A DNA stretch of 64,000 nucleotides, from positions 1 to 64,000 of the IMG/VR virus record IMGVR_UViG_3300008107_000074; one strand, 5' to 3'. The notes under the pieces are model-generated. The model was not told where the DNA came from and did not search any database. It saw only the letters and a program-made list of their open reading frames with translations. Both the position numbers and the translations under genes were made by a program. The stretch is from a virus. Positions 18,960 to 53,896 of this stretch are shown in pieces. Each line of letters opens with the position of its first letter. The first letter of the stretch is position 1.

Positions 18960-18962
18960 TTA

Positions 18963-19313
18963 TTACGTTATTTGAACAACATTAACATTAAATGCACATG
19001 GGTAGTAACAATCACTACATCTTAAATCAACTAATGCTAATTGATAACCACCTTGCAATTTTGGTACCGATGATGGTACAGGGTTTATGTGTCCGTCACA
19101 GTGTTCCACAAATACAAAAATTTGTGGTATGTTATCCAATAAACTTATATTAAACGTATATCCCGTTGATATTGGAATTAAAACTTCAACCCCATTGATA
19201 TAATTTGCATCATCAATATTATGTGTTAACCCTGTGTAGATATAGTACCCGTTACAAGGTGTTTGTCCTGAAAAATTTGATATTGTTACTGAGTATGTTA
19301 CTAATGACGGCAT
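18963..19313 (-). CDS. Small Cys-containing beta protein, 116 aa, fibre cluster
   Basis: Begins MPSLVTYSVTISNFSGQTPC and reads as a single beta-sandwich-sized bead with no Thr-Pro linker. Cysteines occur at about positions 19, 69, 98, 101 and 105 (RCSDCYYPC near the end). Its style matches the N-terminal beads of the neighbouring linked proteins, so it may be a free-standing bead or a cap of the same fibre. Three bases separate it from the 973-aa gene, and a TATTTAT element (19320-19326) precedes the ATG by six bases. Confidence 0.65.
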   Translation of the reverse strand: MPSLVTYSVTISNFSGQTPCNGYYIYTGLTHNIDDANYINGVEVLIPISTGYTFNISLLDNIPQIFVFVEHCDGHINPVPSSVPKLQGGYQLALVDLRCSDCYYPCAFNVNVVQIT

Positions 19314-19338
19314 TATTTCATAAATATAAATTCAATGT

Positions 19339-20187: not shown

Positions 20188-20250
20188 TTTTTAATTATTG
20201 ATTTCTATATTTGATAAATATAAAAAATCCTATTTTATAGTAAAGTTATT

Positions 20251-22815
20251 TTAACATCCATCACCAATTGTATACTGAGTAGTTACCGAACCAGAAACTA
20301 CTTCATAAATTACACTTCCAATTTGAAAAAACCCATCAAATGTTGTTGTTAAGTTATTATTCGTGTAGATGGTAACACCTGAATCATAAATATTGACCAC
20401 ATTTGGTAATGTGTATAATGTTACACTATACGAACCTGAACACAACACAACCCCACTACAGTAATTTGTACATCCAACCATATTCCATTCTTGATATGTC
20501 GGACTAGGTGTTGGTGTAACTGATGGAGTTTTAGTTGGGGTTGGGGTTTTAGTTAAAGTAGGGGTTGGGGTTGGGGAAACCGCTACCAAGGATGAACCAC
20601 AAATTTCGTATAGAGCATTATCATTTATACCATATATTGTATTTGTCGGTACATACAAAGGTTTAGAAATACCGTCACCAATAATTTCACTAAATATACC
20701 TGTTGTCGGGTCTAGAACACCTAAGAATCCATCTGACAATGTTGAATATCTGCTAATATATAATTTACCGTTATCAGGATTATATATCATAGACCTTGTT
20801 GAGCCAAAAATCCAAGTTGCTCCCGATATTGAATTTAAAGTAAGTGTGGTGTTTGTTGCAACATCTATTTTGTATACCGTAGACGCACTAACTAAATAAA
20901 TAATATTGTTCGTCACATCCAAAGCAATTAAACTTGCTGAGGTGATTGGTAGTGATGTACCATCTAACGAAATAGTATTACCAGAACAAGAATATATTCT
21001 ACCACTCTGAGCGAAATATAATTTATTATTATTAGGATTGTAAACAGTCGCTTCAGGGTTTGATAAAGTTATACCTGTAATTTGGTTTGTAAAAGTATCT
21101 GTTGAACCATCTATGACACTAATTTGTGAAACTGAAAAATTTCCACCTGTTTGACTAAATGCATAAATTTTATTTAAAACAGAATTATATTCAATTTTTC
21201 CTAAACCTGATGTTATTCCCGAAATTGATATTGACGATGTTGTGTTTGTGTTTAAATTTCTTATTAACATTTTAACAGGAAATGATGATTCCCAACTGTA
21301 TAATTTGTTGTTAGTTGAGTTATATCCTAATAATAAACTACTTCCTGACCATGTAAATTCATTTGTTAAACTTGTTGAATTTGGGACAAAAGATTGTACA
21401 ACACTTGATGCGTTTAGAACGTATGCTTTGTTATTTGATGATGAATAAACCATACCTTGTCTACCAACGGCAGAATATGAATTCGTTGCGGCAAGAGTAT
21501 TTCTAACTGAATCACTACAACCACCTGATGGTGTTGGGGTCAGGGTCGGGGTTACGGTATTAGTAGGTGTTACACTTGGGGTCGCAACTGGATTACCGGA
21601 TGGACTTGGTGTTGGGGTTTTTGTTGGGGTCGGGGTTGGAGATACAATAGGTACAGGTAATGTAAAATTCACAGAATTAGTACACGTACCAGTACTTTGA
21701 ACTGTAAATGTTGTTATTGAATAACACACAAGTGCGGTATACCCAGATAATAATTGAGATGTTGTCACACCAGTTGCAATTAATACTATAGTTCCTCCTG
21801 TTGTTGTTCCCGAAATATTATAAGGTCCGGCTTGCGTTAAAAAATAAATTGGGTGTAATGAGAATGTATATTGAGTACATCCTGTAGGTACTAGTGAAGG
21901 TGATGGGGTTACTGTGGGTGTTACACTAACAGTTACCGAAGGTGTTAATGAAGGGGTATTTGTGGGTGTATTTGTTGGTGTAACCGAAGGTGTCGAACCT
22001 AACGTACTTGACGGTGTATTTGTGGGTGTATTTGTTGGTGTAACCGAAGGTGTCGGAGTTAGACTTGGAGTTTTTGTTGGAGTTACAGTATTTGTTGGGG
22101 TTGGGGTTTCGGAAGGAGTTTCGGAAGGAGTTTGTGTTAATGTGGGTGTTGGAGTTGGGGTCACACTCGGACAAACTACAGTACAGAAACCATTGAAAGA
22201 TATCCCTGCATATGGGTAACTCGGGTCGTAACAAACATATGTTGGTGAAAATGAACCACTATGATATACACCACAACAGTCCGTATAATACCAATTTGGT
22301 GAATCGGTTATACCTGAGTAACATAAAGTTGGTGTGGGTGTTGGAGTAGGGGTAGGAGTTGGACTTGGTGGTGTTAAACAGTCAATACAATTTGTAAAAA
22401 GAGCATTTTCAGAAATTAATTGTGCAACAGTATAATTGTAAGTGGTGCTACCAGTGCCTTGTTCATAAACTCCTGTATAGTTGTAACATGTACCATCATA
22501 AGAAATTGTTGCACCTGTACTTTGGAAATACTGATTAACTTCTGAATTTTTTAAACCAAAGTAAACAAATGCCCCTGGTATTTGGCAATGTTCAAATTGC
22601 CACCCATTAAAATCGTCGTTACATTGTTCACAGGTTGTATAACCACTAAAAATAACCGTACCTGACGGTCCACCTCCGACATTTCCTGTTGAAGACCAAC
22701 ATTGGTAATCAGCAAAAATCGTGTCACCCGATAATACTAAACTGTCATCGACGACAAAATCATAGTATGACGCTGGGTCTAAACAATTTTGAAATGTTAT
22801 TATTTGTGCTGGCAT
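20251..22815 (-). CDS. Thr-Pro-linked virion protein carrying a beta-propeller bead, 854 aa
   Basis: Five beads are separated by Thr-Pro linkers. Bead 1 (about 1-148) is Cys-rich. Bead 2 has NWYYTDCCGVYHSG. Bead 3 (about 310-390) is immunoglobulin-like. Bead 4 (about 430-745) is a repeat domain of YNPxNNKLYxxx blades: YNSTNNKLYSW, YNSVLNKIYAF, YNPNNNKLYFAQ, VTNNIIYLVS and YNPDNGKLYIS. These are typical of YncE/NHL-like beta-propellers. Bead 5 is a C-terminal Cys bead (CTNYCSGVVLC ... YTIGDGC). Propellers often bind glycans or proteins, so this bead is a candidate receptor-binding domain. Neighbours share the linkers and the Y-x-D-C-x-G pattern. Confidence 0.75.
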   Translation of the reverse strand: MPAQIITFQNCLDPASYYDFVVDDSLVLSGDTIFADYQCWSSTGNVGGGPSGTVIFSGYTTCEQCNDDFNGWQFEHCQIPGAFVYFGLKNSEVNQYFQSTGATISYDGTCYNYTGVYEQGTGSTTYNYTVAQLISENALFTNCIDCLTPPSPTPTPTPTPTPTLCYSGITDSPNWYYTDCCGVYHSGSFSPTYVCYDPSYPYAGISFNGFCTVVCPSVTPTPTPTLTQTPSETPSETPTPTNTVTPTKTPSLTPTPSVTPTNTPTNTPSSTLGSTPSVTPTNTPTNTPSLTPSVTVSVTPTVTPSPSLVPTGCTQYTFSLHPIYFLTQAGPYNISGTTTGGTIVLIATGVTTSQLLSGYTALVCYSITTFTVQSTGTCTNSVNFTLPVPIVSPTPTPTKTPTPSPSGNPVATPSVTPTNTVTPTLTPTPSGGCSDSVRNTLAATNSYSAVGRQGMVYSSSNNKAYVLNASSVVQSFVPNSTSLTNEFTWSGSSLLLGYNSTNNKLYSWESSFPVKMLIRNLNTNTTSSISISGITSGLGKIEYNSVLNKIYAFSQTGGNFSVSQISVIDGSTDTFTNQITGITLSNPEATVYNPNNNKLYFAQSGRIYSCSGNTISLDGTSLPITSASLIALDVTNNIIYLVSASTVYKIDVATNTTLTLNSISGATWIFGSTRSMIYNPDNGKLYISRYSTLSDGFLGVLDPTTGIFSEIIGDGISKPLYVPTNTIYGINDNALYEICGSSLVAVSPTPTPTLTKTPTPTKTPSVTPTPSPTYQEWNMVGCTNYCSGVVLCSGSYSVTLYTLPNVVNIYDSGVTIYTNNNLTTTFDGFFQIGSVIYEVVSGSVTTQYTIGDGC

Positions 22816-22859: not shown

Positions 22860-25800
22860 TTAACATGCTTCTCCACAAAATGTGTTACAATAATCACCAC
22901 AACCAGTACCGTATGTATATTGCGAAGTATATATTGGTGGTACGAAGTTTCCTCTAAACAATATAAACACATTTGTCACTCTCATAAGACAAACGCTATA
23001 ATTACCAGGGGCGTTATAACCTTGTGTTGTGAATGTACCATCACAACATTGGTATGCAAAGTATACTTGATTATCATCTGAGGCTGTTAAATCATTAATA
23101 TCAACAAAAAAGTCTGTACACAAACAATCACCACAAGCACCATCATACGTTATCTCCCCACCATAAGGACCTAATACACTTGGAATACTACATGAACATA
23201 TCTCAATTGTACCACTTGCTGGGTACACATTTGGGTCAAGTATTTCTGTGGGTGTTCCTCCACCGCAACAAGTGGTATAGTTAACTATATTACCAGGTCC
23301 TAATCCTGTAATAATATATGACTCACAAACACATGGTGGAGTTGGGGTTGGGGTCGGAGTTGGAGTTGGGGTTGGGGTTGATGACGGATTTGAAACCGGA
23401 GATGGTGTTGGAGTGTTTGTTGGAGTGTTTGTTGGAGTTACAGTCTTGGTTGGTGTATTTGTAGGAGTATTGGTTGGTGTTAAAGTTGGAGTAACTGTCC
23501 TTGTTGGAGTATTTGTAGGGGTAAAGGTTGGAGTTACAGTCTTGGTTGGAGTATTTGTAGGGGTAAAGGTTGGAGTTACAGTCTTGGTTGGTGTATTTGT
23601 AGGGGTAAAGGTTGGAGTTACAGTCTTGGTTGGTGTATTTGTAGGAGTATTGGTTGGTGTTAAAGTTGGAGTAACTGTCCTTGTTGGTGTATTTGTCGGT
23701 GTTTTTGTTGGGGTTAAAGTTGGTGTAACTGTTGGTGTAACTGTTGGGGTTGGTGAAGGACAAGGGTGATAAGTTTCACATTCAGTACATGTATTGTATG
23801 TACCATACGCAGTGATTGCGGAACCAGGTACTCCTGGTCCGACTGAGTTTGTAACAAAATAACAACAACCATTAATTGATATATAACGGTTTACTAAAAG
23901 ATTTGGGTTAAATCCATTTTGACAACCAAATTGAATTGTATATTGTCCTGTTGTACCACAACATCCACATCTTTGTAAATCGAAAATCCAAGTGGCGCAT
24001 GGGTTAGCTCCAATACATGTTTCACATGTATCAACACTAAATGATGATGGTGGATAATACCCGTCAACCCCACTAAAGTTTGGTGGTGAGTAGGTTTGAC
24101 TATAACCTTCAACAAAATAACAACATCCATTTATAACAATAGTTTGACCTTGTGAAATACCGCTTTGAACATAGGTCAAATTAGTTGTTATACTTAAATA
24201 AGAAATAGTATTACCTAAAATACCACCATCACAACATGGTAATAAATAAACATAACCAACCTGTAAGGATGGTGATGGTGTTACTGTGCTTGTTGGTGTT
24301 AATGTAGGAGTTAAAGTTGGTGTAACTGTTTTTGTTGGTGTATTGGTAGGGGTTACGGATGGTGTTCTCGTAGGAGTAACACTATTGGTTGGGGTGTTAG
24401 TCGGGGTTAAAGTTGGTGTAACTGTTCTTGTTGGTGTATTGGTAGGGGTTACCGTAGGGCTAACAGTGGCGGCTGGAGTTCTTGTTGGAGTAACAGTATT
24501 TGTTGGGGTATTGGTTGGTGTGAGAGTTGGTGTAACTGTTCTTGTTGGTGTATTGGTAGGGGTTACCGTATTCGTAGGTGTAACAGTTCTGGTTGGTGTT
24601 GGTGTCGGGGTTGGTGATGGACAAAAATTTAGAGTTTCTCCTAAACATTGTGCACAACTTGTCTGAACAGTAGTGTAAATCGTACCTCCAGGTCCTACCT
24701 GTTGCACATACGTTGCACATAACTGAATGTCTTGTAAATAAAATACCGTACCTAACAATGTACCTAATGGTACTTGACCATAATAAACATTGGTGTCACC
24801 AGGACAACATGATTCAAATCTAGCAGCAACATACTGAGGACTAGCCGTTGGGGTTACTGTTTTGGTTGGTGTCAATGTTGGTGTAACAGTATTTGTTGGA
24901 GTGTTAGTTGGTGTTACGGTTGGACTAACTGTGGCAGCCGGTGTTCTTGTTGGTGTAACAGTATTTGTTGGGGTATTTGTTGGAGTTACCGTAGGACTAA
25001 CAGTGGCTGCTGGAGTTCTTGTTGGGGTATTGGTTGGGGTAACAGTATTTGTGGGGGTTACTGTGTTCGTTGGGGTATTGGTAGGTGTATTTGTTGGTGT
25101 TAATGTTGGACTAACAGTAGCCGCTGGTGTTCTTGTTGGTGTAACAGTATTTGTTGGGGTATTTGTTGGAGTTACCGTATTTGTTGGAGTATTAGTTGGG
25201 GTGTTAGTTGGTGTTACAGTGTTGGTTGGTGTATTAGTTGGAGTTAAAGTTGGTGTAACTGTTCTTGTTGGTGTATTGGTAGGTGTAACTGTATTCGTAG
25301 GGGTGACTGTATTAGTTGGAGTGTTGGTTGGAGTATTAGTTGGAGTTAAGGTTGGACTAACAGTGGCAGCTGGTGTTCTTGTCGGGGTTACGGTATTAGT
25401 AGGGGTATTGGTTGGAGTTACCGTATTTGTTGGAGTATTAGTTGGGGTGTTGGTTGGAGTAACAGTGTTGGTTGGGGTGTTAGTAGGGGTGTTGGTCGGT
25501 GTAACTGTATTTGTTGGAGTAACAGTATTAGTAGGTGTGTTTGTTGGTGTGTTAGTCGGTGTTAATGTTGGACTAACAGTAGCCGCTGGTGTTCTCGTAG
25601 GAGTTACAGTATTGGTAGGAGTATTGGTAGGAGTAACGGTGTTTGTTGGGGTGTTTGTAGGAGTATTGGTTGGTGTTACAGTATTGGTTGGAGTATTGGT
25701 TGGTGTAAAAGTTGGTGTAACAGTTTTTGTTGGTGTATTAGTAGGAGTATTGGTCGGTGTGACAGTGTTGGTTGGTGTTACTGTATTTGTTGGAGTATTG

Positions 25801-25892
25801 GTTGGGGTATTGGTTGGTGTAAGGGTAGGACTAACAGTGGCTGCCGGAGTTCTTGTTGGAGTAACAGTATTGGTTGGGGTATTGGTTGGTGT
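22860..25892 (-). CDS. C-terminal part of the giant Thr-Pro repeat protein (third reading frame)
   Basis: The frame is open from 25892 to the stop at 22860 (1010 codons). It has no ATG, and the first usable codon is a TTG at 24875 inside the repeat array, so it reads as a continuation of the giant gene rather than an independent gene. About 340 residues continue the Thr-x array, including recurrent TPAATVSPT units. Then come Cys-rich beads ([16 protein letters not shown], two NGCCYFV modules, [28 protein letters not shown]) separated by short Thr-Pro linkers. The protein ends CNTFCGEAC. Paired CC motifs suggest disulfide or metal-stabilised tip domains. It is joined to the upstream frame at 25893 by one extra base. 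Confidence 0.6.
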
Positions 25893-28800
25893 TGACTGTA
25901 TTCGTTGGAGTGTTAGTAGGTGTAAAAGTTGGTGTGACGGTTCTTGTTGGTGTATTGGTTGGTGTAACGGTATTGGTTGGGGTGTTTGTGGGTGTAAGGG
26001 TAGGACTAACAGTGGCGGCCGGAGTTCTTGTTGGAGTCACTGTATTGGTCGGTGTGTTGGTGGGTGTGACTGTGTTAGTAGGTGTATTTGTAGGTGTATT
26101 AGTTGGTGTGACTGTATTTGTTGGAGTGTTTGTTGGGGTGTTTGTGGGTGTAACAGTATTAGTAGGAGTATTGGTTGGTGTTACAGTTTTGGTTGGAGTG
26201 TTAGTAGGTGTAACAGTATTAGTAGGTGTATTGGTAGGTGTATTGGTTGGTGTAACAGTATTCGTAGGAGTATTTGTTGGAGTATTTGTTGGACTAACAG
26301 TAGCTGCTGGTGTTCTTGTTTTTGTTGGAGTATTTGTTGGACTAACAGTAGCTGCTGGTGTTCTTGTTGGGGTTACGGTATTAGTTGGGGTTACAGTGTT
26401 AGTCGGAGTGTTAGTTGGTGTATTCGTTGGTGTAACGGTATTTGTTGGGGTGTTAGTTGGTGTATTTGTTGGTGTTACTGTATTGGTAGGAGTATTTGTA
26501 GGACTCAATGTAGGTGTAACTGTATTGGTCGGTGTTAAAGTTGGTGTAACTGTCTTTGTTGGTGTATTAGTAGGTGTCTGAGTTGGTGTAACTGTATTAG
26601 TCGGAGTATTAGTAGGCGTAACAGTGTTTGTTGGAGTATTGGTTGGGGTATTTGTAGGAGTTACCGTATTGGTTGGGGTGTTTGTAGGAGTATTGGTAGG
26701 GGTGACAGTCTTGGTTGGAGTATTTGTGGGGGTAACAGTATTTGTTGGGGTAACCGTATTAGTTGGTGTGTTGGTTGGAGTATTTGTTGGGGTTAGAGTT
26801 GGTGTAACAGTTTTTGTTGGTGTATTAGTTGGAGTAACGGTATTTGTTGGGGTATTGGTTGGGGTATTTGTAGGAGTTACCGTATTAGTCGGGGTATTAG
26901 TAGGCGTAACAGTGTTTGTTGGAGTATTGGTTGGGGTGTTTGTAGGAGTTAAGGTAGGTGTAACAGTCTTGGTTGGGGTGTTGGTTGGTGTAACTGTATT
27001 AGTAGGTGTGTTAGTTGGTGTAACTGTATTAGTAGGTGTATTTGTTGGAGTATTTGTTGGGGTAACAGTATTCGTAGGAGTATTGGTCGGTGTTAATGTA
27101 GGAGTAACAGTTCTTGTTGGAGTATTTGTTGGGGTAACAGTATTCGTAGGAGTATTAGTAGGTGTTAATGTAGGTGTAACAGTCTTGGTCGGAGTGTTTG
27201 TAGGAGTATTTGTTGGTGTATGGTGTAACGGTGTTCGTAGGGGTAACTGTAGGACTCAATGTAGGGGTTACAGTATTGGTCGGAGTATTAGTAGGTGTTA
27301 ATGTAGGTGTAACAGTCTTGGTTGGTGTATTGGTTGGGGTAACCGTGTTAGTTGGTGTGTTGGTGGGTGTTACTGTATTAGTAGGAGTAACTGTAGGACT
27401 CAATGTAGGAGTTACAGTCTTGGTTGGTGTATTAGTGGGTGTGTTTGTTGGTGTAACAGTATTGGTTGGGGTAACCGTGTTAGTTGGTGTGTTGGTTGGA
27501 GTATTTGTTGGGGTATTGGTTGGGGTGACTGTCTTAGTCGGTGTATTAGTTGGGGTTACTGTATTTGTTGGTGTAACCGTATTTGTTGGTGTATTTGTGG
27601 GTGTATTGGTTGGAGTTAAAGTTGGTGTTACAGTTTTTGTTGGTGTGTTGGTCGGTGTAACTGTATTTGTTGGTGTATTTGTGGGTGTATTGGTCGGTGT
27701 AACTGTATTTGTTGGAGTATTTGTTGGGGTGTTAGTGGGTGTAACAGTATTAGTAGGAGTATTTGTGGGCGTATTGGTCGGTGTAACTGTATTTGTCGGA
27801 GTATTGGTTGGGGTATTTGTTGGTGTAACGGTGTTCGTAGGGGTAACTGTAGGACTCAATGTAGGGGTTACAGTGTTTGTAGGAGTGTTTGTGGGAGTGT
27901 TGGTTGGGGTAACTGTATTAGTAGGAGTAACTGTAGGGGTGACAGTTTTAGTAGGTGTATTAGTTGGAGTATTGGTAGGGGTTACAGTATTAGTAGGGGT
28001 ATTTGTAGGAGTTAATGTAGGAGTTACAGTCTTGGTTGGGGTATTTGTTGGTGTAACGGTGTTCGTAGGGGTAACTGTAGGACTCAATGTGGGAGTCACC
28101 GTATTGGTCGGAGTATTGGTGGGGGTTACTGTATTAGTAGGAGTATTAGTAGGAGTATTGGTTGGGGTTACCGTGTTGGTCGGAGTTAAAGTTGGTGTAA
28201 CAGTTTTTGTTGGTGTATTGGTTGGAGTTACAGTGTTCGTAGGGGTATTTGTTGGTGTTAGAGTTGGTGTAACAGTTTTTGTTGGTGTATTAGTAGGAGT
28301 TACGGTGTTAGTTGGAGTGTTGGTAGGTGTGTTAGTTGGTGTTACAGTGTTGGTTGGTGTATTAGTAGGTGTCTGAGTTGGTGTAACTGTCTTGGTTGGG
28401 GTATTAGTTGGCGTTACAGTATTGGTTGGGGTTACCGTATTTGTAGGAGTTACGGTATTGGTTGGAGTAACAGTATTAGTCGGCGTTACTGTGTTAGTTG
28501 GGGTGTTAGTGGGGGTAACAGTATTAGTAGGAGTAACGGAATTCGTGGGAGTGTTTGTAGGAGTGTTTGTTGGTGTTAATGTAGGTGTTACGGTTTTTGT
28601 TGGTGTATTGGTTGGGGTTACTGTATTTGTAGGAGTATTTGTAGGAGTTAAGGTAGGTGTAACAGTATTGGTTGGGGTATTGGTAGGTGTGTTGGTCGGG
28701 GTGACTGTGTTAGTTGGTGTAACTGTATTAGTTGGTGTATTCGTAGGGGTTTGAGTTGGTGTAACAGTATTGGTTGGGGTATTTGTTGGAGTTAAAGTTG

Positions 28801-31800
28801 GTGTGACAGTTTTTGTTGGTGTATTGGTAGGAGTTACGGTATTTGTAGGAGTATTAGTCGGTGTCTGAGTTGGTGTTACGGTGTTTGTTGGAGTATTGGT
28901 TGGAGTTAATGTAGGTGTTACAGTCTTGGTTGGTGTATTAGTTGGTGTTACAGTATTAGTAGGTGTAACAGTATTAGTAGGTGTAACAGTGTTTGTAGGT
29001 GTAACGGTATTGGTGGGAGTCACCGTATTAGTTGGTGTGTTAGTTGGGGTTACGGTGTTGGTTGGAGTAACGGTATTTGTTGGGGTGTTTGTAGGAGTGT
29101 TTGTTGGTGTTAATGTAGGTGTTACGGTTTTTGTTGGTGTATTGGTTGGTGTAACAGTATTTGTTGGTGTGTTGGTGGGTGTGTTGGTGGGTGTTACAGT
29201 ATTAGTTGGGGTATTAGTAGGACTCAATGTTGGGGTAACAGTATTCGTTGGTGTTACAGTATTGGTTGGAGTGTTTGTTGGGGTATTTGTTGGGGTTACG
29301 GTATTAGTAGGGGTATTGGTTGGAGTTAATGTAGGAGTAACAGTCTTGGTTGGTGTATTAGTTGGCGTAACAGTGTTTGTTGGGGTGTTAGTTGGGGTAT
29401 TTGTAGGGGTTACCGTATTGGTCGGAGTGTTGGTTGGTGTTAATGTAGGAGTAACAGTCTTGGTTGGAGTGTTTGTTGGGGTAACAGTATTGGTTGGAGT
29501 CACTGTATTAGTTGGTGTGTTGGTCGGTGTATTTGTTGGGGTTAAAGTTGGTGTGACAGTTTTTGTTGGTGTATTGGTTGGGGTTACTGTGTTAGTAGGA
29601 GTGTTTGTAGGTGTATTAGTAGGGGTATTAGTATTAGTCGGGGTATTGGTCGGTGTAACTGTATTCGTTGGAGTAACGGTAGGAGTTAATGTAGGAGTAA
29701 CAGTCTTGGTTGGTGTATTAGTAGGTGTGTTAGTAGGGGTTACCGTATTGGTTGGGGTGTTAGTCGGGGTAACTGTGTTAGTTGGTGTGTTAGTTGGTGT
29801 GTTGGTCGGAGTTACCGTATTTGTTGGAGTATTTGTAGGGGTTAAGGTAGGCGTAACAGTTCTTGTTGGAGTATTGGTCGGTGTAACTGTATTCGTTGGA
29901 GTTACAGTGTTAGTGGGGGTTACGGTATTGGTCGGCGTTACAGTGTTAGTCGGTGTTACCGTATTAGTTGGAGTATTTGTTGGCGTAACAGTGTTTGTTG
30001 GAGTTACAGTGTTTGTGGGGGTATTGGTTGGAGTATTGGTGGGAGTCTGAGTTGGGGTGACTGTCTTAGTTGGGGTATTGGTCGGGGTAACTGTGTTGGT
30101 TGGAGTAACGGTATTTGTTGGGGTATTGGTCGGGGTATTGGTTGGAGTTAAAGTTGGCGTAACAGTGTTTGTTGGTGTATTGGTAGGTGTTACAGTATTA
30201 GTTGGGGTATTGGTTGGAGTTAAAGTTGGTGTAACAGTTTTTGTTGGTGTATTAGTTGGCGTTACAGTATTAGTTGGTGTGTTAGTTGGTGTGTTTGTTG
30301 GGGTTACCGTATTGGTCGGAGTTACCGTAGGACTCAATGTAGGAGTTACAGTATTAGTTGGTGTGTTGGTTGGTGTGACTGTATTCGTTGGAGTGTTAGT
30401 AGGTGTCTGAGTTGGGGTAACAGTATTTGTTGGAGTATTGGTAGGAGTATTGGTAGGGGTTACAGTATTGGTAGGAGTATTGGTAGGGGTTACAGTATTG
30501 GTAGGAGTATTCGTTGGGGTTAGAGTTGGTGTAACAGTTTTGGTAGGAGTATTAGTAGGGGTTACAGTATTTGTAGGAGTTACCGTAGGACTCAATGTGG
30601 GAGTCACCGTATTAGTTGGTGTATTGGTTGGGGTTACGGTGTTGGTTGGAGTGTTTGTAGGTGTATTAGTTGGAGTAACAGTATTTGTAGGTGTATTAGT
30701 CGGGGTATTGGTTGGTGTTACGGTGTTGGTTGGGGTTAAAGTTGGTGTGACAGTTTTTGTTGGTGTATTGGTTGGCGTAACAGTGTTTGTCGGAGTATTA
30801 GTTGGGGTGTTGGTTGGTGTATTAGTTGGAGTTACAGTGTTGGTTGGAGTGTTAGTTGGTGTTACGGTATTGGTTGGGGTTACTGTGTTTGTAGGAGTAT
30901 TGGTCGGTGTATTCGTTGGGGTTAGAGTTGGTGTAACAGTTTTGGTAGGAGTATTAGTAGGAGTTATAGTATTCGTTGGTGTGTTGGTCGGTGTAACAGT
31001 ATTAGTTGGGGTGTTGGTTGGGGTGTTGGTTGGAGTAACAGTATTAGTTGGAGTATTAGTTGGGGTGTTGGTTGGAGTAACAGTGTTTGTTGGGGTTACC
31101 GTAGGGCTCAATGTGGGAGTTACAGTTTTAGTAGGGGTGTTTGTTGGAGTTACGGTGTTGGTTGGGGTATTGGTTGGTGTGTTAGTTGGTGTAACTGTAT
31201 TAGTGGGAGTCACTGTAGGGCTCAATGTTGGAGTTACAGTGTTGGTTGGGGTGTTAGTTGGTGTATTGGTTGGTGTAACTGTATTCGTTGGAGTGTTTGT
31301 AGGAGTGTTGGTTGGGGTTACAGTATTAGTTGGTGTGTTGGTTGGAGTTAATGTAGGTGTAACGGTTCTTGTGGGGGTGTTGGTAGGGGTTACGGTATTA
31401 GTTGGAGTGTTTGTTGGGGTATTTGTTGGGGTTACGGTATTAGTTGGAGTGTTTGTTGGGGTATTTGTTGGGGTTACGGTATTAGTAGGGGTATTGGTTG
31501 GGGTATTTGTTGGGGTTACGGTATTAGTAGGGGTATTGGTTGGAGTTAATGTAGGTGTAACGGTTCTTGTGGGGGTGCTGGTAGGGGTTACGGTGTTAGT
31601 TGGAGTGTTGGTAGGTGTGTTAGTTGGCGTAACGGTGTTAGTTGGAGTCACAGTCGGACTCAATGTAGGTGTTACTGTATTTGTTGGGGTGTTGGTAGGG
31701 GTATTTGTAGGTGTTACGGTGTTGGTAGGTGTAACTGTTGGACTCAATGTAGGAGTCACAGTATTTGTTGGTGTATTTGTAGGTGTGTTAGTTGGGGTAA

Positions 31801-34800
31801 CGGTATTAGTTGGAGTGTTGGTTGGTGTATTTGTTGGTGTTACTGTGTTAGTAGGGGTATTTGTGGGAGTATTTGTAGGTGTTACGGTGTTGGTAGGTGT
31901 AACTGTTGGACTCAATGTGGGAGTCACAGTTTTAGTAGGAGTATTTGTAGGTGTTACGGTGTTGGTAGGTGTGTTTGTTGGGGTATTGGTTGGAGTTACC
32001 GTATTCGTCGGAGTATTAGTAGGGGTGTTAGTTGGAGTTACAGTGTTTGTTGGTGTGTTTGTAGGGGTATTGGTAGGTGTTACTGTGTTAGTAGGAGTAT
32101 TTGTAGGAGTATTGGTTGGTGTTACGGTATTTGTAGGAGTTACAGTTGGTGTTAATGTAGGAGTCACCGTGTTTGTTGGGGTATTGGTGGGAGTATTTGT
32201 AGGGGTTACCGTATTTGTCGGTGTATTGGTTGGTGTTAAAGTAGGTGTAACCGTTCTTGTTGGAGTGTTAGTTGGTGTAACCGTATTTGTAGGAGTATTA
32301 GTAGGGGTGTTGGTAGGGGTTACAGTATTCGTAGGGGTATTGGTTGGTGTATTCGTGGGTGTGACAGTATTAGTTGGTGTTACGGTTGGACTCAGTGTAG
32401 GGGTTACTGTATTGGTTGGAGTGTTAGTTGGGGTATTTGTAGGTGTAACTGTATTTGTTGGGGTGTTTGTAGGTGTATTAGTTGGTGTAACTGTATTAGT
32501 TGGTGTATTCGTAGGGGTTTGAGTTGGTGTAACAGTATTTGTAGGAGTCACAGTCGGACTCAATGTGGGAGTCACGGTCTTAGTCGGTGTGTTAGTAGGG
32601 GTAACTGTGTTCGTAGGAGTTACCGTAGGACTCAATGTAGGGGTGACAGTGTTGGTTGGAGTATTGGTTGGTGTGTTGGTTGGTGTTACGGTGTTTGTAG
32701 GAGTTACTGTATTAGTAGGAGTGTTCGTAGGGGTATTGGTAGGGGTTACTGTGTTAGTTGGAGTGTTAGTAGGTGTATTGGTAGGAGTAACTGTATTGGT
32801 TGGTGTATTTGTGGGTGTAACAGTGTTAGTTGGTGTGTTAGTTGGTGTGTTGGTAGGAGTTACGGTGTTAGTTGGAGTATTTGTAGGTGTCTGAGTTGGT
32901 GTAACTGTATTCGTAGGGGTTACAGTCGGACTCAGTGTAGGTGTTACTGTGTTAGTCGGGGTAACTGTAGGTGTATTTGTTGGAGTTACAGTGTTGGTTG
33001 GGGTGTTGGTTGGAGTTACGGTGTTCGTTGGAGTATTGGTTGGTGTATTAGTTGGGGTTACTGTATTAGTTGGAGTATTGGTTGGGGTATTGGTTGGAGT
33101 TACAGTCTTGGTTGGTGTGTTGGTTGGTGTTACGGTGTTTGTTGGAGTATTGGTTGGAGTGTTTGTGGGGGTGTTGGTTGGTGTTACGGTGTTTGTTGGG
33201 GTGACTGTATTGGTTGGAGTGTTTGTTGGGGTGTTGGTGGGAGTATTTGTAGGGGTTACCGTATTTGTCGGTGTATTGGTTGGTGTTAAAGTAGGTGTAA
33301 CCGTTCTTGTTGGAGTTACAGTCGGACTCAATGTTGGAGTTACTGTATTGGTTGGTGTTAGTGTCGGGCTTAATGTTGGTGTAACAGTACTAGTTGGGGT
33401 ATTGGTTGGGGTGTTGGTTGGAGTTACCGTATTGGTTGGTGTATTCGTCGGTGTATTTGTAGGTGTAACAGTATTCGTAGGTGTTACAGTTGGAGTATTG
33501 GTTGGGGTTACTGTGTTAGTTGGAGTATTGGTGGGGGTATTGGTTGGAGTAACAGTATTTGTTGGTGTCACAGTCGGACTCAATGTTGGTGTAACAGTTT
33601 TTGTTGGGGTATTTGTCGGTGTCTGAGTTGGTGTTACGGTATTGGTTGGCGTATTGGTAGGAGTATTGGTTGGCGTATTTGTTGGAGTTACGGTATTAGT
33701 TGGTGTGACTGTATTGGTTGGGGTGTTAGTCGGCGTGTTCGTAGGGGTGTTGGTTGGTGTTACCGTATTTGTTGGTGTATTAGTAGGTGTGTTAGTAGGT
33801 GTTACTGTATTTGTAGGCGTGTTCGTGGGAGTCTGAGTTGGTGTTACAGTGTTAGTAGGAGTGTTAGTTGGCGTGTTAGTGGGTGTAACAGTATTAGTAG
33901 GAGTCACCGTTGGACTCAATGTAGGTGTAACAGTATTGGTTGGTGTGTTGGTCGGAGTGTTGGTAGGAGTTACAGTATTAGTAGGAGTCACCGTTGGACT
34001 CAATGTAGGTGTAACTGTATTTGTTGGGGTATTTGTTGGGGTATTGGTAGGAGTTACTGTATTAGTCGGAGTGTTGGTCGGGGTGTTGGTTGGAGTAACA
34101 GTGTTGGTGGGAGTATTGGTTGGAGTGTTAGTTGGTGTATTTGTTGGGGTTACGGTGTTGGTTGGAGATACCGTATTTGTAGGAGTATTGGTTGGAGTGT
34201 TAGTTGGGGTTAGTGTTGGGGTTACGGTGTTTGTTGGGGTATTGGTAGGTGTATTGGTTGGTGTAACGGTATTTGTAGGAGTAACAGTGTTGGTTGGAGT
34301 ATTGGTAGGACTTAATGTTGGCGTATTAGTTGGGGTTACGGTGCTGGTTGGAGTCACTGTTGGACTCAATGTAGGTGTAACTGTATTTGTTGGTGTGTTG
34401 GTAGGAGTGTTTGTAGGAGTCACAGTATTAGTAGGAGTCACAGTTGGACTTAATGTGGGAGTTACTGTATTAGTTGGAGTGTTGGTAGGTGTGTTAGTTG
34501 GGGTTACTGTATTTGTCGGGGTATTGGTTGGGGTATTTGTTGGTGTAACGGTGTTGGTCGGAGTGTTTGTGGGAGTATTTGTAGGAGTTACTGTGTTCGT
34601 AGGAGTTACTGTAGGACTCAATGTTGGTGTTACTGTATTTGTTGGGGTGTTAGTAGGAGTGTTTGTTGGAGTCACCGTGTTTGTTGGGGTATTGGTGGGA
34701 GTATTTGTTGGTGTAACAGTATTTGTTGGGGTGTTAGTTGGGGTGTTGGTAGGAGTTACCGTATTGGTTGGTGTGTTAGTTGGGGTGTTGGTAGGAGTTA

Positions 34801-37800
34801 CCGTATTGGTTGGTGTGTTAGTAGGAGTGTTTGTTGGTGTAACAGTATTGGTTGGTGTGTTAGTAGGAGTGTTTGTTGGTGTAACAGTATTGGTAGGAGT
34901 TACAGTTGGGGTGTTGGTTGGAGTTACAGTATTAGTAGGCGTATTGGTAGGAGTATTAGTTGGAGTTACTGTATTTGTAGAAGTATTGGTAGGAGTATTG
35001 GTAGGGGTGACAGTATTGGTGGGCGTATTGGTAGGAGTATTGGTTGGGGTGACTGTATTTGTTGGAGTATTTGTTGGGGTGTTAGTTGGAGTTACTGTAT
35101 TTGTAGGAGTATTGGTAGGAGTATTGGTAGGGGTGACAGTATTGGTGGGGGTGTTTGTAGGAGTATTGGTAGGGGTGACAGTATTGGTTGGAGTATTAGT
35201 TGGGGTGACTGTATTTGTTGGAGTATTTGTTGGGGTGTTGGTAGGGGTGTTGGTAGGAGTTACAGTATTGGTTGGAGTAACTGTATTGGTTGGAGTGTTT
35301 GTCGGGGTATTTGTAGGTGTCAGTGTCGGTGTTACGGTATTTGTTGGAGTATTAGTAGGAGTGTTAGTTGGTGTAACCGTATTTGTTGGTGTATTTGTGG
35401 GTGTATTGGTAGGAGTAACTGTATTGGTAGCCGTATTGGTAGGAGTGTTGGTTGGTGTATTAGTTGGTGTGACTGTATTGGTCGGAGTTACCGTCGGTGT
35501 ATTTGTTGGGGTTACGGTATTGGTAGGGGTTACTGTTGGTGTATTCGTAGGCGTGTTTGTTGGGGTTACGGTATTTGTTGGAGTATTAGTGGGGGTATTC
35601 GTAGGTGTATTGGTTGGTGTTACGGTGTTAGTTGGGGTATTTGTAGGGGTTTGAGTTGGTGTAACGGTATTGGTTGGAGTCACTGTTGGACTCAATGTTG
35701 GCGTTACCGTATTGGTAGGAGTATTAGTTGGCGTATTGGTAGGAGTAACTGTGTTGGTTGGGGTGTTGGTAGGAGTGTTAGTTGGTGTTACAGTATTAGT
35801 TGGTGTGTTAGTTGGTGTGTTTGTTGGTGTTACGGTGTTCGTAGGGGTGTTAGTAGGTGTCAGTGTTGGGGATACCGTATTGGTAGGAGTGTTAGTTGGT
35901 GTATTTGTAGGGGTTACCGTATTGGTAGGAGTATTAGTTGGTGTATTTGTAGGAGTAGCAGTATTAGTAGGGGTATTTGTTGGAGTATTGGTCGGTGTTA
36001 CAGTGTTTGTTGGAGTGTTGGTTGGTGTTACAGTGTTTGTTGGGGTGTTTGTCGGAGTGTTGGTTGGGGTATTCGTTGGTGTTACAGTATTTGTAGGGGT
36101 TACGGTGTTGGTTGGAGTATTGGTGGGGCTTAATGTTGGGGTATTTGTAGGGGTTACGGTGTTGGTTGGGGTCGCTGTTGGAGTCAATGTAGGTGTAACT
36201 GTATTGGTTGGGGTATTGGTAGGAGTATTGGTTGGGGTAACAGTATTGGTAGGAGTAACTGTTGGACTCAATGTAGGAGTAACTGTATTGGTAGGAGTGT
36301 TTGTTGGTGTATTGGTTGGTGTTACAGTATTAGTTGGAGTATTTGTTGGAGTTAAAGTTGGTGTAACAGTTTTTGTTGGTGTATTAGTTGGGGTGTTAGT
36401 AGGAGTTACTGTATTGGTTGGTGTGTTTGTGGGAGTATTGGTTAATGTAACGGATGGTGTTACAGTGTTGGTTGGTGTTACCGTTGGAGTATTGGTGGGT
36501 GTTGGGGTGCTCGTTGGAGTTGGTGAGGGTAACATTGTATAATCAATGTCACAAGAAGGTGCTGGTGTTGGTGAAACCGTCACAGTTACACTTGGTGTAT
36601 TTGTTGGAGTTACAGTATTGGTTGGAGTTACAGTATTTGTCGGGGTGTTTGTGGGGGTAACTGTATTGGTTGGAGTCACTGTTGGACTCAATGTTGGTGT
36701 TACAGTGTTAGTAGGAGTGTTGGTCGGCGTGTTAGTTGGAGTATTGGTTGGTGTTACGGTGTTAGTTGGTGTTACCGTAGGACTCAATGTAGGAGTCACA
36801 GTATTGGTAGGTGTATTGGTTGGAGTATTGGTTGGTGTTACGGTGTTAGTTGGTGTTACCGTAGGACTCAATGTAGGAGTCACAGTATTCGTTGGTGTGT
36901 TTGTAGGTGTATTAGTCGGAGTTACGGTGTTGGTTGGAGTTACGGTATTTGTGGGAGTGTTTGTAGGAGTGTTGGTAGGAGTGTTTGTTGGAGTTACGGT
37001 GTTGGTTGGGGTATTGGTTGGGGTATTGGTTGGTGTAACGGTATTTGTAGGAGTATTTGTAGGTGTCTGAGTTGGAGTTACTGTATTCGTCGGTGTGTTT
37101 GTTGGGGTGTTGGTAGGAGTTACGGTATTGGTAGGACTTAATGTTGGAGTGTTAGTTGGAGTATTTGTTGGAGTTACTGTGTTGGTTGGAGTATTCGTAG
37201 GTGTAACCGTATTTGTTGGTGTATTAGTTGGGGTGTTTGTAGGTGTATTAGTTGGTGTCACAGTTTCTGTTGGAGTCACTGTAACAGTATTGGTTGGTGT
37301 GACTGTATTGGTAGGGGTTACGGTGTTGGTTGGTGTAAGTGTTGGTGTTTCTGTGGGAGTATTTGTTGGTGTGTTGGTGGGGGTATTTGTTGGTGTTTCG
37401 GTTGGTGTATTTGTAGGTGTATTAGTTGGAGCTACCGTATTTGTTGGAGTTACAGTTGGAGTGTTAGTTGGGGTAACCGTTGGTGTAACAGTATTGGTAG
37501 GAGTATTGGTTGGGGTTTGAGTTGGTGTAACGGTTGCAGTATTTGTTGGTGTTAGGGTAGGTGTTTCAGTTTGTGTTACAGTGGGTGTATTGGTTGGAGT
37601 TACAGTATTGGTTGGAGTTACAGTTGAGGTATTAGTCGGAGTGTTAGTTGGTGTTATGGTGTTGGTTGGGGTATTGGTAGGTGTTTCGGTAGGGGTAACG
37701 GTTGGACTCAGTGTTGGTGTTACTGTGTTAGTCGGAGTATTAGTTGGGGTGTTGGTTGGTGTTTCGGTAGGGGTAACGGTTAGGGTTACGGTGTTGGTTG

Positions 37801-38640
37801 GAGTATTGGTTGGTGTTTCGGTTGGTGTTTCGGTTGGTGTATTAGTTGGGGTAACAGTATTGGTTGGAGTTACAGTTGGGGTAACAGTTGGGGTAACAGT
37901 TGGAGTTACGGTGTTGGTTGGGGTATTGGTTGGTGTTTCGGTTGGTGTTTCGGTTGGTGTATTAGTTGGGGTAACAGTATTTGTTGGGGTGTTAGTGGGT
38001 GTTTCAGTCGGTGTATTAGTTGGGGTATTGGTTGGTGTTTCGGTAGGGGTTACTGTATGAGTTGGTGTATTGGTAGGTGTTTCGGTAGGGGTTACCGTAT
38101 TTGTTGGAGTTACAGTTGGAGTTTCGGTAGGGGTAACTGTATTTGTTGGGGTGTTGGTAGGTGTTTCAGTTGGTGTATTGGTTGGGGTTACCGTATTTGT
38201 TGGGGTTACAGTTGGAGTTTCGGTCGGAGTAACAGTTGGTGTCTCGGTTGGTGTAACTGTATTCGTAGGAGTTACAGTAGGTGTGTTGGCTGGTGATTCG
38301 GTTGGAGTTACTGTGTTAGTTGGGGTAACTGTAGGAGTTTCAGTTGGGGTAACCGTTGGGGTATTTGTTGGGGTATTGGTTGGAGTTACTGTGTTAGTTG
38401 GAGTAACTGTAGGAGTTTCAGTTGGGGTAACTGTAGGCTCGTTTGTTGGAGTATTAGTCGGAGTTACGGTATTCGTAGGAGTATTTGTTGGAGTGATAGT
38501 ATTGGTTGGGGTAACAGTAGGTGTTTTTGTAACCGTAGGTGTAACAGTAGGGGTTTTGGTAACTGTTGGGGTTGGGGTATTTGAAGTAAAGGTTGTTGGT
38601 GTTGGTGTTAATGATGGTGTAAGTGTTGGTGAAGGTGTAG
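24846..38640 (-). repeat. About 13.8 kb degenerate tandem array encoding (Thr-x)n
   Basis: The basic DNA units are 12, 18 and 30 bases, encoding [10 protein letters not shown] and [10 protein letters not shown]. Copies such as ggtgttacagt, gtattggttgg and ggactcaatgt recur throughout on the plus strand. Units are highly similar in peptide but vary at synonymous third positions. There is one non-repeat interruption (about 36521-36571) and two frame-breaking indels (27220, 25893). Confidence 0.9.
25894..27219 (-). pseudogene. Middle segment of the giant Thr-Pro array in a second reading frame
   Basis: 442 codons of uninterrupted (T-x)n repeat, open between the two frame breaks at 27220 and 25893. 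It contains no ATG; a TTG at 26508 is the only start-like codon I found. In the present assembly it would not be translated from the giant gene's start. It is shown separately because it could reflect assembly errors, a real frame-breaking mutation, or translational frameshifting. Confidence 0.55.
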
Positions 38641-38848
38641 GTGAAGGTGTAGGGCAAGGAATCTCAGCCACACAAGTTTTATCAAGTGACGGAAAATAAA
38701 CTGAGTAAGTACCTAAGTAGTAGTTTGTGTCGTAATAATATGGCATCACGACAGTACCTAAATTCAAGGTACCGCCAGTACAAGGATAAAATGTGATAAC
38801 ACCAATTTCACCATCAAAATTACCTGTGTTTATTTTTATTAATGCCAT
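27155..38848 (-). CDS. Giant Thr-alternating repeat protein (3897 aa in this frame; about 5330 aa if frame breaks are joined)
   Basis: Residues 1-66 form a small bead ([16 protein letters not shown] ... TCVAEIPC). From there nearly every second residue is Thr, in units such as [10 protein letters not shown] and [14 protein letters not shown]. One break occurs, near residue 768 ([15 protein letters not shown]). The last 21 residues ([21 protein letters not shown]) are the repeat read out of frame after 27220, so the natural protein almost certainly continued into the two downstream frames. There is no signal peptide, enzyme motif or membrane segment. All four Thr and all four Pro codons are used, so the peptide pattern is kept while the DNA varies. 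It is probably an extended virion stalk or mucin-like surface protein. A consensus-like promoter precedes it (38889-38917). Confidence 0.8.
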
Positions 38849-38938: not shown

Positions 38939-41900
38939 TCATGGACAATCAAAAATGGAACTACTTAATTCCTCATTAGTTGGTTCTGTAGGACAATGGT
39001 TGGCATCGATATAATATTGACCGAGGTTGAATCCAATATTTGGATGTTTATCGTATTTGTGTTTCATCAGAATTTGGTCGCTGTTATTTCCATTGAAAAC
39101 AACAACAAATTCATCAGTTAGTGGTGTATTGTCTAATTCAAAATTTAGATTGAAGTATAATCCTGTATCGCAATAATTTAAGTCGACATCAATTACTTCT
39201 ATGGTTTTACCATATTTGTTTATTAAATAATCCCCATGGTTATATAATTCTTTCGGATGGTCACAACAAGGTTCAATAAAATCTGTTGGTTTTTTTTGTA
39301 ATTCCTCTGGGAACCTATCGTCAAAAAAGTAAACACTATTTGTAGGTGTTCCAAAATTTTCAATGATTCTATTTGTATAAACTCTTAGTTGTGTTGTTGG
39401 TAAAACTTCAAAAACTTCATAAGTATTATTTTGGGTTAATCCTGTAATGATACTTTTCTTGATTGATGCTAAACATTCAATGTCTGTAATTTCAAGTTTT
39501 TGATAGTTGTACGTAAATGAATACCCTGATACAGGTCCATTCACAATTTGTTGGTGACTATATTCTGTACATTGTTTGTAAGATGCAGATAAAACATATT
39601 CCCCAACATTTAAATCACAAACACTTTTACCACTTATCGTACCACCACTAATATAACTTTCAATATTGTCATCTGTAGTTTGGTTGTCAATGGTTAATCC
39701 GCTATCAACTACTAAAACTATAGAGTCACATTTTAAACCATAGTTAAAGTTTGATTTGTATTCAACTTTTGGTTGTATTGTGTAACCTGTGTAATTGTCA
39801 CAATATGTTGCACCTGAAACAACTGAAATTGGGGATGATATTGTTCCTTGGTAACCAACAATACTAAATAATTCTACGTGACTTTTTCCTGATGGTGTTG
39901 GACATGGGTCATGTTCAATTTTGGGTTGTAGACCTTCAATTTTGAATTTTACTTCTTTATTTGCTGCATCTACAATATTAAAATCTATTACATCATTTTC
40001 TGAAAAACCAGTTAATTTATATACACAATCACTAACTTTTTGAATGTAAACATCCGCATTTTCATTTGTTCCACTTACACAATTAGCATAAATGTTAAAT
40101 GGCCATGTTGAACCTTGTTGGATACCTGTTTTGTATCCAATTACTTCAAAAAACACATCACTCACTAATGTACATCCACTGTTTGAGTCGCAATAAACGG
40201 TATTATCAGTATAAACTTTAACACTGATTCCATTTGTATTTTTTGTGATTTTGTAATCGGCATCAAATCGATAATCAAAATAGTCGACCACTGAACATTC
40301 GTTTGGACCTAATTTTACGGATGAAAACTTAACTTTTTCAACACCATTTTCATCAGTGTATGTTGTGTATTTTATTAATGGTATTGTTTCTGAAAAATAT
40401 GTTTGGCCTGTGGTTCCCGTGAAAGCAGAATAGGGTTCATACCCTGCACTATTTCTTGTAATAGTTACGTCATCAATCAATACAGATAACGCCGATAACC
40501 ATAGTTCTTTAATTTTAGTAACATCAGGTTCAAGATAATCTTTATAATCACATATTAAGGAAAGATTTACCGTATCACCACTGGTGACCCCACTTGTACA
40601 TCCTGTAAATGGTTGTGCATCAAATAATTTTGCACTGTTTGAAGTGTTACTTGTTCCACTAACAATCACATACATAGAGGATGTTAGACCCGTGTAGTCG
40701 GCCCCACCATAAACTGTTCCATCAATTTCAATTACAGGATAGTAAGTAACACCTGTAAGGTTTATTAAACCTCTAAAATTATTTTCTTCACCTAAAATAT
40801 TTTCTAAATCTTCCTCAATTACATTTTCAAAATCAGGGTATAGTTCCTCAATAAATTCTAATGGTTGACAATCATATCTATATTGATATTTTGGTCTACC
40901 AAACACGTTATTTTCTATTAAATTACCGCCGGTCCATTGAGTGGTTGATGGTACTAATTGTTCAACTAATTGTGGCCAATAAGGTGATAATTTATTAACA
41001 AATTCAATAACATTTATTTGATTATATGGTGTAAAACCTGTTGTTTGTGATATATAATCTCTATAGACATCTTCTAATTGAATATAATTTTTTTTGTAAC
41101 GAATTTTGTTAGAATTTGTTACAAGTCCATGAATAAAGGTGTCTAAAAATTCAGCAAAAGTTTTACCTGTTTGGGGTAATAAAGTATTTGTACCAAAACT
41201 TATTAATAATTCTCTACTTTGTCTAAAGATATCATAATCTATACCTCGTGATGGTGAGATATAAATTCCAATGTTTTTTCTATTTAAAATTAATAAATAA
41301 TCATCCTCAATTGGTTTTCCGTCTTTATTATCGACCGCGGAAACCAATTCATAACCGGTATCTAAACCTGGTAATGTTCTATATAAATCAAAGTATTCTT
41401 CTCCGTATGTGTAGTTTTTATTCTTTGTTTTAATTGTTTTGGTGTTACCCGTTAGTATTGAGTTACTACTGTCTAAAACGAGTGGAGTACGGTGTGATAA
41501 TGTAATATCGTACCATCCTGAACCTTTACCAAAGAATATGTTTTCAGTTTCGTTATATGCTCTTCTTGGTAGTCCAGTTTTTTCGTCTACAGGGTAACCC
41601 TCTCTGTCAAATGTTGTTGACGCTGAGTAGTAAACTTTAGAATATGTGAAACCTGTACTATCAAAGGTGGCGTAAGAATATCTTTTGTTACCTTGAATCG
41701 CATCGTATATGTCTTGTTGTAAATTAAAACTAGATGGAATTGACGTTACTTTATAAATGTATTCATCAATCCTAATCAAAGGCTCGGGTGCCCCCAAAAA
41801 TTTTAAAAAGAAATCAATAGAGGATTTTGTTCCTTTTGATTTATAAATGTGAGCAAGATTTATAAGTAATCTTCGATAAAACTCATACTCAGCTTCAATT

Positions 41901-53895: not shown

Positions 53896-53896
53896 A

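What the first reader, a model, noticed from the sequence alone, without database searches (positions are those of the whole stretch)
24846..38640. About 4600-residue protein array in which nearly every second residue is threonine
The minus strand encodes (T-x)n with x mostly Pro or Asn, and Val every 6, 10 or 14 residues ([24 protein letters not shown]). About half of a protein of up to 5330 aa is Thr. The strict alternation excludes N-x-T glycosylation sites within the array, since the residue two after Asn is not Thr. It presents a continuous Thr lattice that could be O-modified or form an extended stalk. At this size it takes more than a fifth of the window. Thr-Pro linkers are common in small numbers, but an array this long in a phage structural block is something I have not seen described.
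Basis: partly seen in the sequence, partly recalled or inferred. Interest (0 to 1): 0.92.

Follow-up and report, generated by a model that had tools for sequence, protein, structure and literature searches.

The report
Giant threonine-lattice phage fibre, probably sugar-coated
A large freshwater phage carries an intact gene for a 5,472-residue protein whose middle is a 4,750-residue threonine lattice preserved by selection, and the same phage encodes enzymes of a family that puts sugars on threonines, so it may be a bacteriophage's own version of a mucin.

Summary
The array is real. In the window the frame breaks twice, at joints where bases are missing; six other IMG/VR records of this phage carry an identical intact 16,419-bp gene encoding 5,472 aa. 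Residues 65-4814 are (T-x)n; one unbroken [T/S]-x run is 3,440 residues long (shuffled maximum 36). Thr third codon positions agree no more than chance at 16 spacings tested, while the first two stay fixed: strong protein-level selection. The gene follows baseplate genes in a bS21-type jumbo phage (at least 288 kb), with a conserved beta-sandwich head and Cys-rich tips. Complete relatives have 2,737-4,989 aa, other x residues, the same hydroxyl lattice. The phage encodes two PF11397 proteins, the family (by recall GT60) of polypeptide GlcNAc-transferases that glycosylate Thr in trypanosome mucins. PF11397 and TPTxTPT tracts go together across phages: 22 of 31 PF11397-positive records have tracts, 0 of 23 negatives do, and 9 of 16 tract-bearing records have PF11397. 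Best reading: a baseplate-borne, O-glycosylated, mucin-like tether with binding tips. Selection is shown; virion location, glycosylation and binding are inferred.

The parts
22860..38848 (-). Gene of the giant threonine-lattice protein (5,472 aa in intact records; in the window frame-broken at two of three joints where bases are missing)
38657..38848 (-). N-terminal head domain, residues 1-64, six-stranded beta sandwich (AF2 pLDDT 91.6 on residues 1-66), family conserved across phages
24837..38656 (-). [T/S]-x lattice with mostly P, N or V at x (residues 65-4814 of the intact protein)
36512..36565 (-). Mid-array motif [18 protein letters not shown] with the only Cys of the array apart from C65 at its edge; conserved in most but not all relatives (absent in G020)
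27220..27221 (.). Joint where 149 bases present in intact records are absent (frame break)
26320..26321 (.). Joint where 240 bases are absent (in frame)
25892..25893 (.). Joint where 41 bases are absent (frame break)
24624..24836 (-). Cys-rich module D1 (residues 4815-4885)
23763..24266 (-). Paired Cys-rich modules D2 and D3 (about residues 5005-5172)
22863..23351 (-). C-terminal tip modules tipB and tipA (about residues 5310-5472); tipA AF2 pLDDT 87.8; tipA-type modules in 48 proteins of 41 loci (loci include repeated records of one phage)
38939..43183 (-). Upstream neighbour, 1,414 aa, no match in Pfam, PHROGs or NCBIfam; found in 11 of 12 and 19 of 25 related records searched
52063..54349 (-). 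Two baseplate wedge subunit genes (52063-53895 and 53897-54349) upstream in the same orientation
16038..22815 (-). Downstream proteins with short TP linkers (20251-22815, 19339-20187, 16038-18959), all matching phrog_15511 (unknown function), as does the C-terminal part of the giant protein

Best explanation
The gene encodes a mucin-like tail appendage. The small beta-sandwich head (residues 1-64) docks on the virion near the baseplate. The 4,750-residue [T/S]-x lattice is made in the host cytoplasm, and many of its Thr residues are capped with alpha-GlcNAc by the phage's own PF11397 (GT60-type) transferases, possibly extended by its other glycosyltransferases. Glycans and prolines keep the chain extended and protease-resistant: contour length about 1.5 micrometres at 0.31 nm per residue, mean reach about 54 nm as a bare coil and about 170-210 nm if stiffened. 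The Cys-rich modules at the far end bind the host surface or its glycans, and the mid-array CDIDYT motif, where present, is a docking or cross-linking point. Shown: an intact gene, selection for the hydroxyl lattice, a modular family, co-occurrence with PF11397. Inferred: virion location, glycosylation, stiffness, binding by the tips, the motif's role.
For: Six identical intact copies. 127 copies of the 14-aa unit have 125 different DNA sequences; Thr third-base identity is 0.278-0.322 at 16 lags against 0.301 expected, while the 1,720 anchors of the long run are 1,686 T and 34 S. Complete orthologues of 4,989, 2,940 and 2,737 aa, and a truncated one of at least 4,673 aa, have other x residues but the same lattice; T and S interchange in some (708/589 in G020). 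The gene lies downstream of baseplate wedge genes. Conserved head, variable linker and varied C-termini, the layout of adhesive fibres. Two PF11397 proteins in G001 (E 3e-72 and 7e-48) in one cluster with a nucleotidyltransferase and a methyltransferase; a second cluster has a UDP-GlcNAc 2-epimerase and GT2 enzymes. PF11397 against tracts: 22/31 versus 0/23, Fisher 2.6e-8; converse 9/16. The three GenBank phages with a homologue at E <= 1e-5 all carry TPTxTPT tracts, and at least two glycoproteins are reported for one, XacN1 (PMC5852040, passages). TcOGNT, which makes GlcNAc-Thr in mucins, and the Skp1 enzyme Gnt1 are both GT60 (PMC9472816 and PMC6939170, passages).
Against: No proteomics, mass or microscopy. 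The PF11397 genes lie about 140 kb from the array gene in G001. 9 of 31 PF11397-positive records lack the tract pattern, and 7 of 16 tract-bearing records lack PF11397; any may be fragments. Records are phylogenetically non-independent and controls were not random. PF11397 enzymes could act on other targets. Neither the head nor the tip has a significant structural match, so docking and binding are not supported by homology. G038 uses T almost only (2,214 T, 3 S) while G020 mixes T and S; not explained. The mid-array motif is absent from the complete G020 array. Not all copies are saturated: two rarer units keep third-position identity of 0.48 and 0.53 against 0.37 expected, and repeated words of 18 to 60 bases exceed codon-shuffled controls. 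No tail-fibre family matched.
Confidence: 0.5

Rival explanations
1. A virion tether of the same architecture that is not glycosylated: a bare polyproline-like or disordered chain carrying the tips. The PF11397 enzymes act on other substrates.
For: Architecture, position and selection fit equally well. PF11397 genes are distant from the array gene, and 7 of 16 tract-bearing records lack them.
Against: The two-way PF11397 association and the kept hydroxyl while x differs between phages are not needed for a bare tether.
Confidence: 0.27
2. A non-virion protein: displayed or released by the infected host, for example as an anti-superinfection brush, a decoy or an aggregation factor.
For: No virion evidence; several TP-linker proteins sit in tandem.
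Against: Sits in the baseplate block directly after a 1,414-aa neighbour conserved in relatives. Membrane anchors were not looked for.
Confidence: 0.1
3. A DNA-level feature (strand-asymmetric G/T-rich tract acting in replication or packaging), the protein being incidental.
For: GC skew of 0.69-0.78 per kilobase from 25 to 38 kb on the + strand.
Against: The frame is kept for 5,472 codons; variation at Thr codons is concentrated in third positions, whose usage is broadly that of other genes though not the same (Thr ACA 0.34 against 0.48).
Confidence: 0.02
4. Assembly artefact, or recent slippage expansion without function.
For: The window copy and three other records lack stretches at joints; a 116-bp exact repeat and excess repeated words show some recent duplication.
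Against: Six identical intact records, three truncated copies identical over 11.9-12.7 kb, third-position randomness, and orthologues in other phages.
Confidence: 0.03

Closest known systems
Trypanosoma cruzi mucins and their GT60 polypeptide alpha-GlcNAc-transferase TcOGNT (PMC3769586 abstract; PMC9472816 passages)
   Same: Mucin-like chain modified on Thr; enzyme of (by recall) the same glycosyltransferase family encoded by the same genome; GlcNAc-Thr proposed here
   Different: Eukaryotic, Golgi-made and GPI-anchored; here a phage protein made in bacterial cytoplasm, with a strict [T/S]-x lattice; glycosylation undemonstrated
Jumbo phage XacN1 (PMC5852040, passages): ORF334 glycosyltransferase and reported glycoproteins
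   Same: PF11397-type enzyme 48% identical to ours, TPTxTPT tracts (14 matches), and at least two glycoproteins reported by its authors
   Different: The tracts I saw are short; no giant lattice seen; the passages I saw do not link tracts and enzyme
Curly fibres of Bacillus phage 0305phi8-36 (PMC2147016, passages)
   Same: Large fibres at the baseplate of a large myovirus
   Different: No Thr lattice mentioned in the passages seen; candidate fibre genes flank the head module; the accession I tried was not in the collection, so not compared
bS21-encoding freshwater Bacteroidetes phages (PMC9723584, abstract and passages)
   Same: G001 carries bS21 on the reverse strand between portal and major head protein genes
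   Different: The word threonine does not occur in that paper's main text
Thr/Pro-rich linkers of secreted bacterial and fungal enzymes (recalled; listing)
   Same: Short TP repeats joining domains
   Different: Short (recalled), without the head domain; the [16 protein letters not shown] pattern occurs in one stretch of the 84,980-species genome collection

Membership tests
Mucin-type O-glycoprotein | Long Ser/Thr/Pro-rich repeat domain | tested here: met
Mucin-type O-glycoprotein | Cys-rich non-repeat domains flanking the repeat | tested here: met
   (C-terminal side; the head region has three Cys)
Mucin-type O-glycoprotein | Dense O-glycans on the repeat | not testable with these tools
   Needs mass spectrometry
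PF11397 (GT60-type polypeptide GlcNAc-transferase) | Match above the curated Pfam cut-off | tested here: met
   Two G001 proteins at 244 and 164 bits, cut-off 21. That PF11397 corresponds to CAZy GT60 is recalled
PF11397 (GT60-type polypeptide GlcNAc-transferase) | Transfers GlcNAc to a polypeptide | not testable with these tools
   Needs an enzyme assay; catalytic residues were not compared
Phage tail fibre or baseplate appendage | Gene in the baseplate/tail block | tested here: met
Phage tail fibre or baseplate appendage | Conserved N-terminal domain with variable distal parts | tested here: met
   (52 of the 80 loci examined)
Phage tail fibre or baseplate appendage | Match to a known tail-fibre family or fold | tested here: not met
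   C-terminal part matches only phrog_15511 of unknown function; head has no significant PDB or BFVD match, tip none in PDB
Phage tail fibre or baseplate appendage | Present in the virion | not testable with these tools
   Needs virion proteomics
bS21-encoding freshwater Bacteroidetes jumbo phage | bS21 gene on the reverse strand within the portal/major head protein region | tested here: met
   G001 bS21 at 28129-28287 (-) between portal and major head protein genes on +
bS21-encoding freshwater Bacteroidetes jumbo phage | Host among Bacteroidetes | tested here: inconclusive
   Best RNR hits include Tenacibaculum and Cellulophaga phages; no CRISPR evidence sought

The most novel reading that the evidence does not exclude
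Bacteriophages have evolved their own mucin system: a family of virion appendages whose hydroxyl-lattice shafts, up to about 4,750 residues, are O-glycosylated in the bacterial cytoplasm by phage-encoded GT60-type polypeptide GlcNAc-transferases, giving micrometre-contour sugar-coated tethers.
Probability: 0.42. Interest if true: 0.93.

Novelty: new variant of a known kind. Interest (0 to 1): 0.8.

Why it matters
If true, phages make mucin-like fibres with a dedicated glycosylation enzyme, a chemistry best known from eukaryotes. That would change how virion surfaces, adsorption range and phage glycoproteins are understood, and would give a bacterial-cytoplasm route to mucin-type polymers. Even without glycosylation, it is a natural case of extreme protein-level constraint on a simple sequence with largely randomised codons. 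The association gives a direct test: one enzyme and one peptide.

Tried and rejected
Rejected: DNA-level function (Thr-codon variation concentrated in third positions); assembly artefact for the array as a whole; slippage without selection.

Led nowhere: tblastn of the C-terminal part, head, D2-D3 and two neighbours against GenBank phages (no match; single sequences, low-complexity filter on); PDB sequence search with the head profile and with one PF11397 protein (0 hits); fold searches of head and tip (nothing at E <= 0.001); Pfam for four neighbouring proteins (none); NCBIfam for the two PF11397 proteins and three neighbours (none); exact 23-base pattern search of G000 (none). Paper searches for Thr-rich phage fibres, giant proteins, mucin-like phage proteins, TPT strings and O-glycosylated virion proteins listed no paper that I could see describing this; listings were capped and subscription journals are largely not held, so absence from print is not shown. 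pdb_via was not used.

Caveats on counts: one search was given 31 of the 34 contigs of 60 kb or more's list of 80 (left out: two with a PF11397 protein 100% identical to ours, and G020, measured). The 23 negatives are 13 RNR-selected IMG/VR records, some probably near-duplicates, and 10 GenBank phages of my choosing or from the RNR hits. One search examined 52's 80 loci, which are the best 80 of 115. Anchors inside [T/S]-x runs are T or S by definition; the run lengths are not. The unit-copy counts condition on the protein sequence; one search does not. Of one search's 15 loci, 11 were taken on for the whole array region (L002, L005 and L008 end at contig ends; L013 was already held). One search scanned 10 ORFs of the first glycan cluster (4 without a hit) and one search scanned 10 of the second (4 without a hit).
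Full report
OBSERVATION. The minus strand between about 24837 and 38656 encodes (T-x)n. In the window this is a 3,897-aa ORF (27155-38848) followed by pieces in other frames. Nine other IMG/VR records of the same phage were compared over the whole gene: six contain an identical 16,419-bp gene, one open frame of 5,472 aa; three carry one frame break each. The window equals the intact gene except for three exact joints where 149, 240 and 41 bases are missing, and three truncated copies are identical to the intact gene over 11,891-12,741 bases. The broken frame is therefore best read as assembly loss; long reads would settle it.

ANATOMY OF THE INTACT PROTEIN. Residues 1-64 form a small domain. 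Residues 65-4814 are the array: 2,302 T, 1,002 P, 745 N and 419 V of 4,750. One unbroken [T/S]-x run covers residues 775-4214 (3,440 residues); 200 composition shuffles reached at most 36. Cys-rich modules follow at 4815-4885, about 5005-5172 and about 5310-5472, separated by further TP linkers. The array contains one internal island, [18 protein letters not shown] at 762-779; its Cys 766 is the only one between Cys 65 and Cys 4824.

SELECTION. The 14-residue unit [14 protein letters not shown] occurs 127 times with 125 different DNA sequences, and third-position identity between copies (0.386) equals that expected from codon usage (0.385). Two rarer, longer units keep more identity (0.482 and 0.526 against about 0.37), so some copies are younger. 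Without conditioning on units, third bases of Thr codons 2 to 1,000 residues apart (16 lags tested) agree at 0.278-0.322 against 0.301 expected. In the long run, 1,715 of 1,720 anchor codons begin with A and 1,691 have C second. Neutral change of about one substitution per site would leave about 20% of codons with both fixed bases intact (simple model). The lattice is thus held at the protein level. Recent duplication is also visible: repeated words of 18, 24, 30, 40 and 60 bases all exceed codon-shuffled controls, and the longest exact repeat is 116 bases against at most 47 in 20 shuffles.

RELATIVES. Orthologues headed by the same domain are complete at 4,989 aa (G038), 2,940 aa (G020) and 2,737 aa (G012); G019 is cut off at 4,673 aa, and G011 has a 4,688-aa frame that runs through 20 Ns and then breaks. 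Their x residues differ (I, L, V, S), but [T/S]-x holds; anchors are 2,214 T and 3 S in G038 and 708 T and 589 S in G020, and G019 has an unbroken run of 3,636, longer than ours. The mid-array motif occurs in six arrays besides ours, with two distant variants; it is absent from the complete G020 array. Beyond this clade the head domain begins many other phage proteins with shorter or no TP linker and other C-termini, and also occurs alone (52 of 80 loci examined). AlphaFold2 gives a confident six-stranded sandwich for the head (pLDDT 91.6) and a confident model for the terminal module (87.8); neither has a significant structural match.

CONTEXT. Upstream are two baseplate wedge genes and several genes without family matches; RNR, DnaB-like helicase, UvsX-like and single-strand-binding protein genes lie nearby. 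The C-terminal part of the giant and three downstream proteins match phrog_15511, of unknown function. The fuller record G001 (288 kb) has bS21 on the reverse strand between portal and major head protein genes, the layout described for freshwater Bacteroidetes phages (PMC9723584, abstract and passages). Single-sequence tblastn found no relative of the head or the C-terminal domains in 50,697 GenBank phage records. Among those viral hits, other phages reach strict runs of at most 808 (top 50 of 119 shown).

GLYCOSYLATION LINK. G001 carries two glycan clusters. One (153.7-166 kb) has an epimerase, an FkbM methyltransferase, two GT2 enzymes and a UDP-GlcNAc 2-epimerase among 10 ORFs scanned. The other (265-280 kb) has two PF11397 'GlcNAc' glycosyltransferases, a nucleotidyltransferase and a TylF methyltransferase among 10 scanned. 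From recall, PF11397 is the Pfam model for CAZy GT60; from passages read, GT60 contains TcOGNT, which makes GlcNAc-alpha-Thr in trypanosome mucins, and the Skp1 enzyme Gnt1. PF11397 was found in 7 of 21 records given (all are possible fragments; the window's own record is among the 14 without) and in 0 of 14 control genomes. Of 31 PF11397-positive IMG/VR records of at least 60 kb, 22 contain TPTxTPTxTP DNA (reversed-pattern control 1 of 31); of 23 PF11397-negative phage records, 0 do; Fisher 2.6e-8, or 7.9e-8 without the two clade members. Conversely, 9 of 16 tract-bearing records carry PF11397. The only three GenBank phages with a homologue at E <= 1e-5, XacN1, RAS14 and CM1, have 14, 4 and 4 tract matches. 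XacN1's authors report at least two glycoproteins and suggest phage-encoded glycosyltransferases make them.

MECHANISM. I infer a baseplate-borne tether: head docks, lattice extends, tips bind. 4,750 residues at 0.31 nm give 1.47 micrometres of contour; root-mean-square reach is 54 nm for a bare coil (1 nm persistence) and 171-209 nm at 10-15 nm persistence (textbook worm-like chain). Heavy O-glycosylation stiffens mucin domains in simulations that their authors call preliminary (PMC10550946, passages). A hydroxyl at every second residue while x differs between phages is what an acceptor lattice would show; a bare spacer would not need it. The weakest steps are virion location and actual glycan transfer.

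NOVELTY. Searches listed nothing that I could see describing a phage Thr lattice of this size or linking it to PF11397 enzymes. I rate it a new variant of a known kind (mucin-like appendage), with the bolder reading, a phage mucin system, kept as the novel case.

Noticed in passing
L240:8968-10197 (G001 about 273.0-274.2 kb): A RuBisCO-large-like ORF (PF00016 E 1e-31; best NCBIfam rubisco_III at 153 bits, far below its cut-off of 497) sits inside the PF11397 glycan cluster.
   Followed up: partly
L275, L284, L286: Proteins with the same head domain end in NVLTHNK, reminiscent (recall) of Hint/intein C-termini.
   Followed up: no
L280-L283: The head domain also occurs as an ORF that stops after 64-65 aa.
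   Followed up: no
L290, L292, L316, L317, L176: A related short motif PAPxCDFxG followed by TPTPT or TPTPS occurs in other proteins of distant phages.
   Followed up: partly
window 2576-3685 (-): Protein whose gene holds imperfect tandem repeats (periods 18-126 bp, about 2624-3025), no PHROGs match.
   Followed up: no
L100 (G011): Orthologous array carries 20 Ns (positions 884-903 in coding orientation) and its frame breaks; in several relatives contigs end inside the array.
   Followed up: partly
L517 (FCPU426 MAG): The only stretch in the 84,980-species genome collection with the [16 protein letters not shown] pattern.
   Followed up: no
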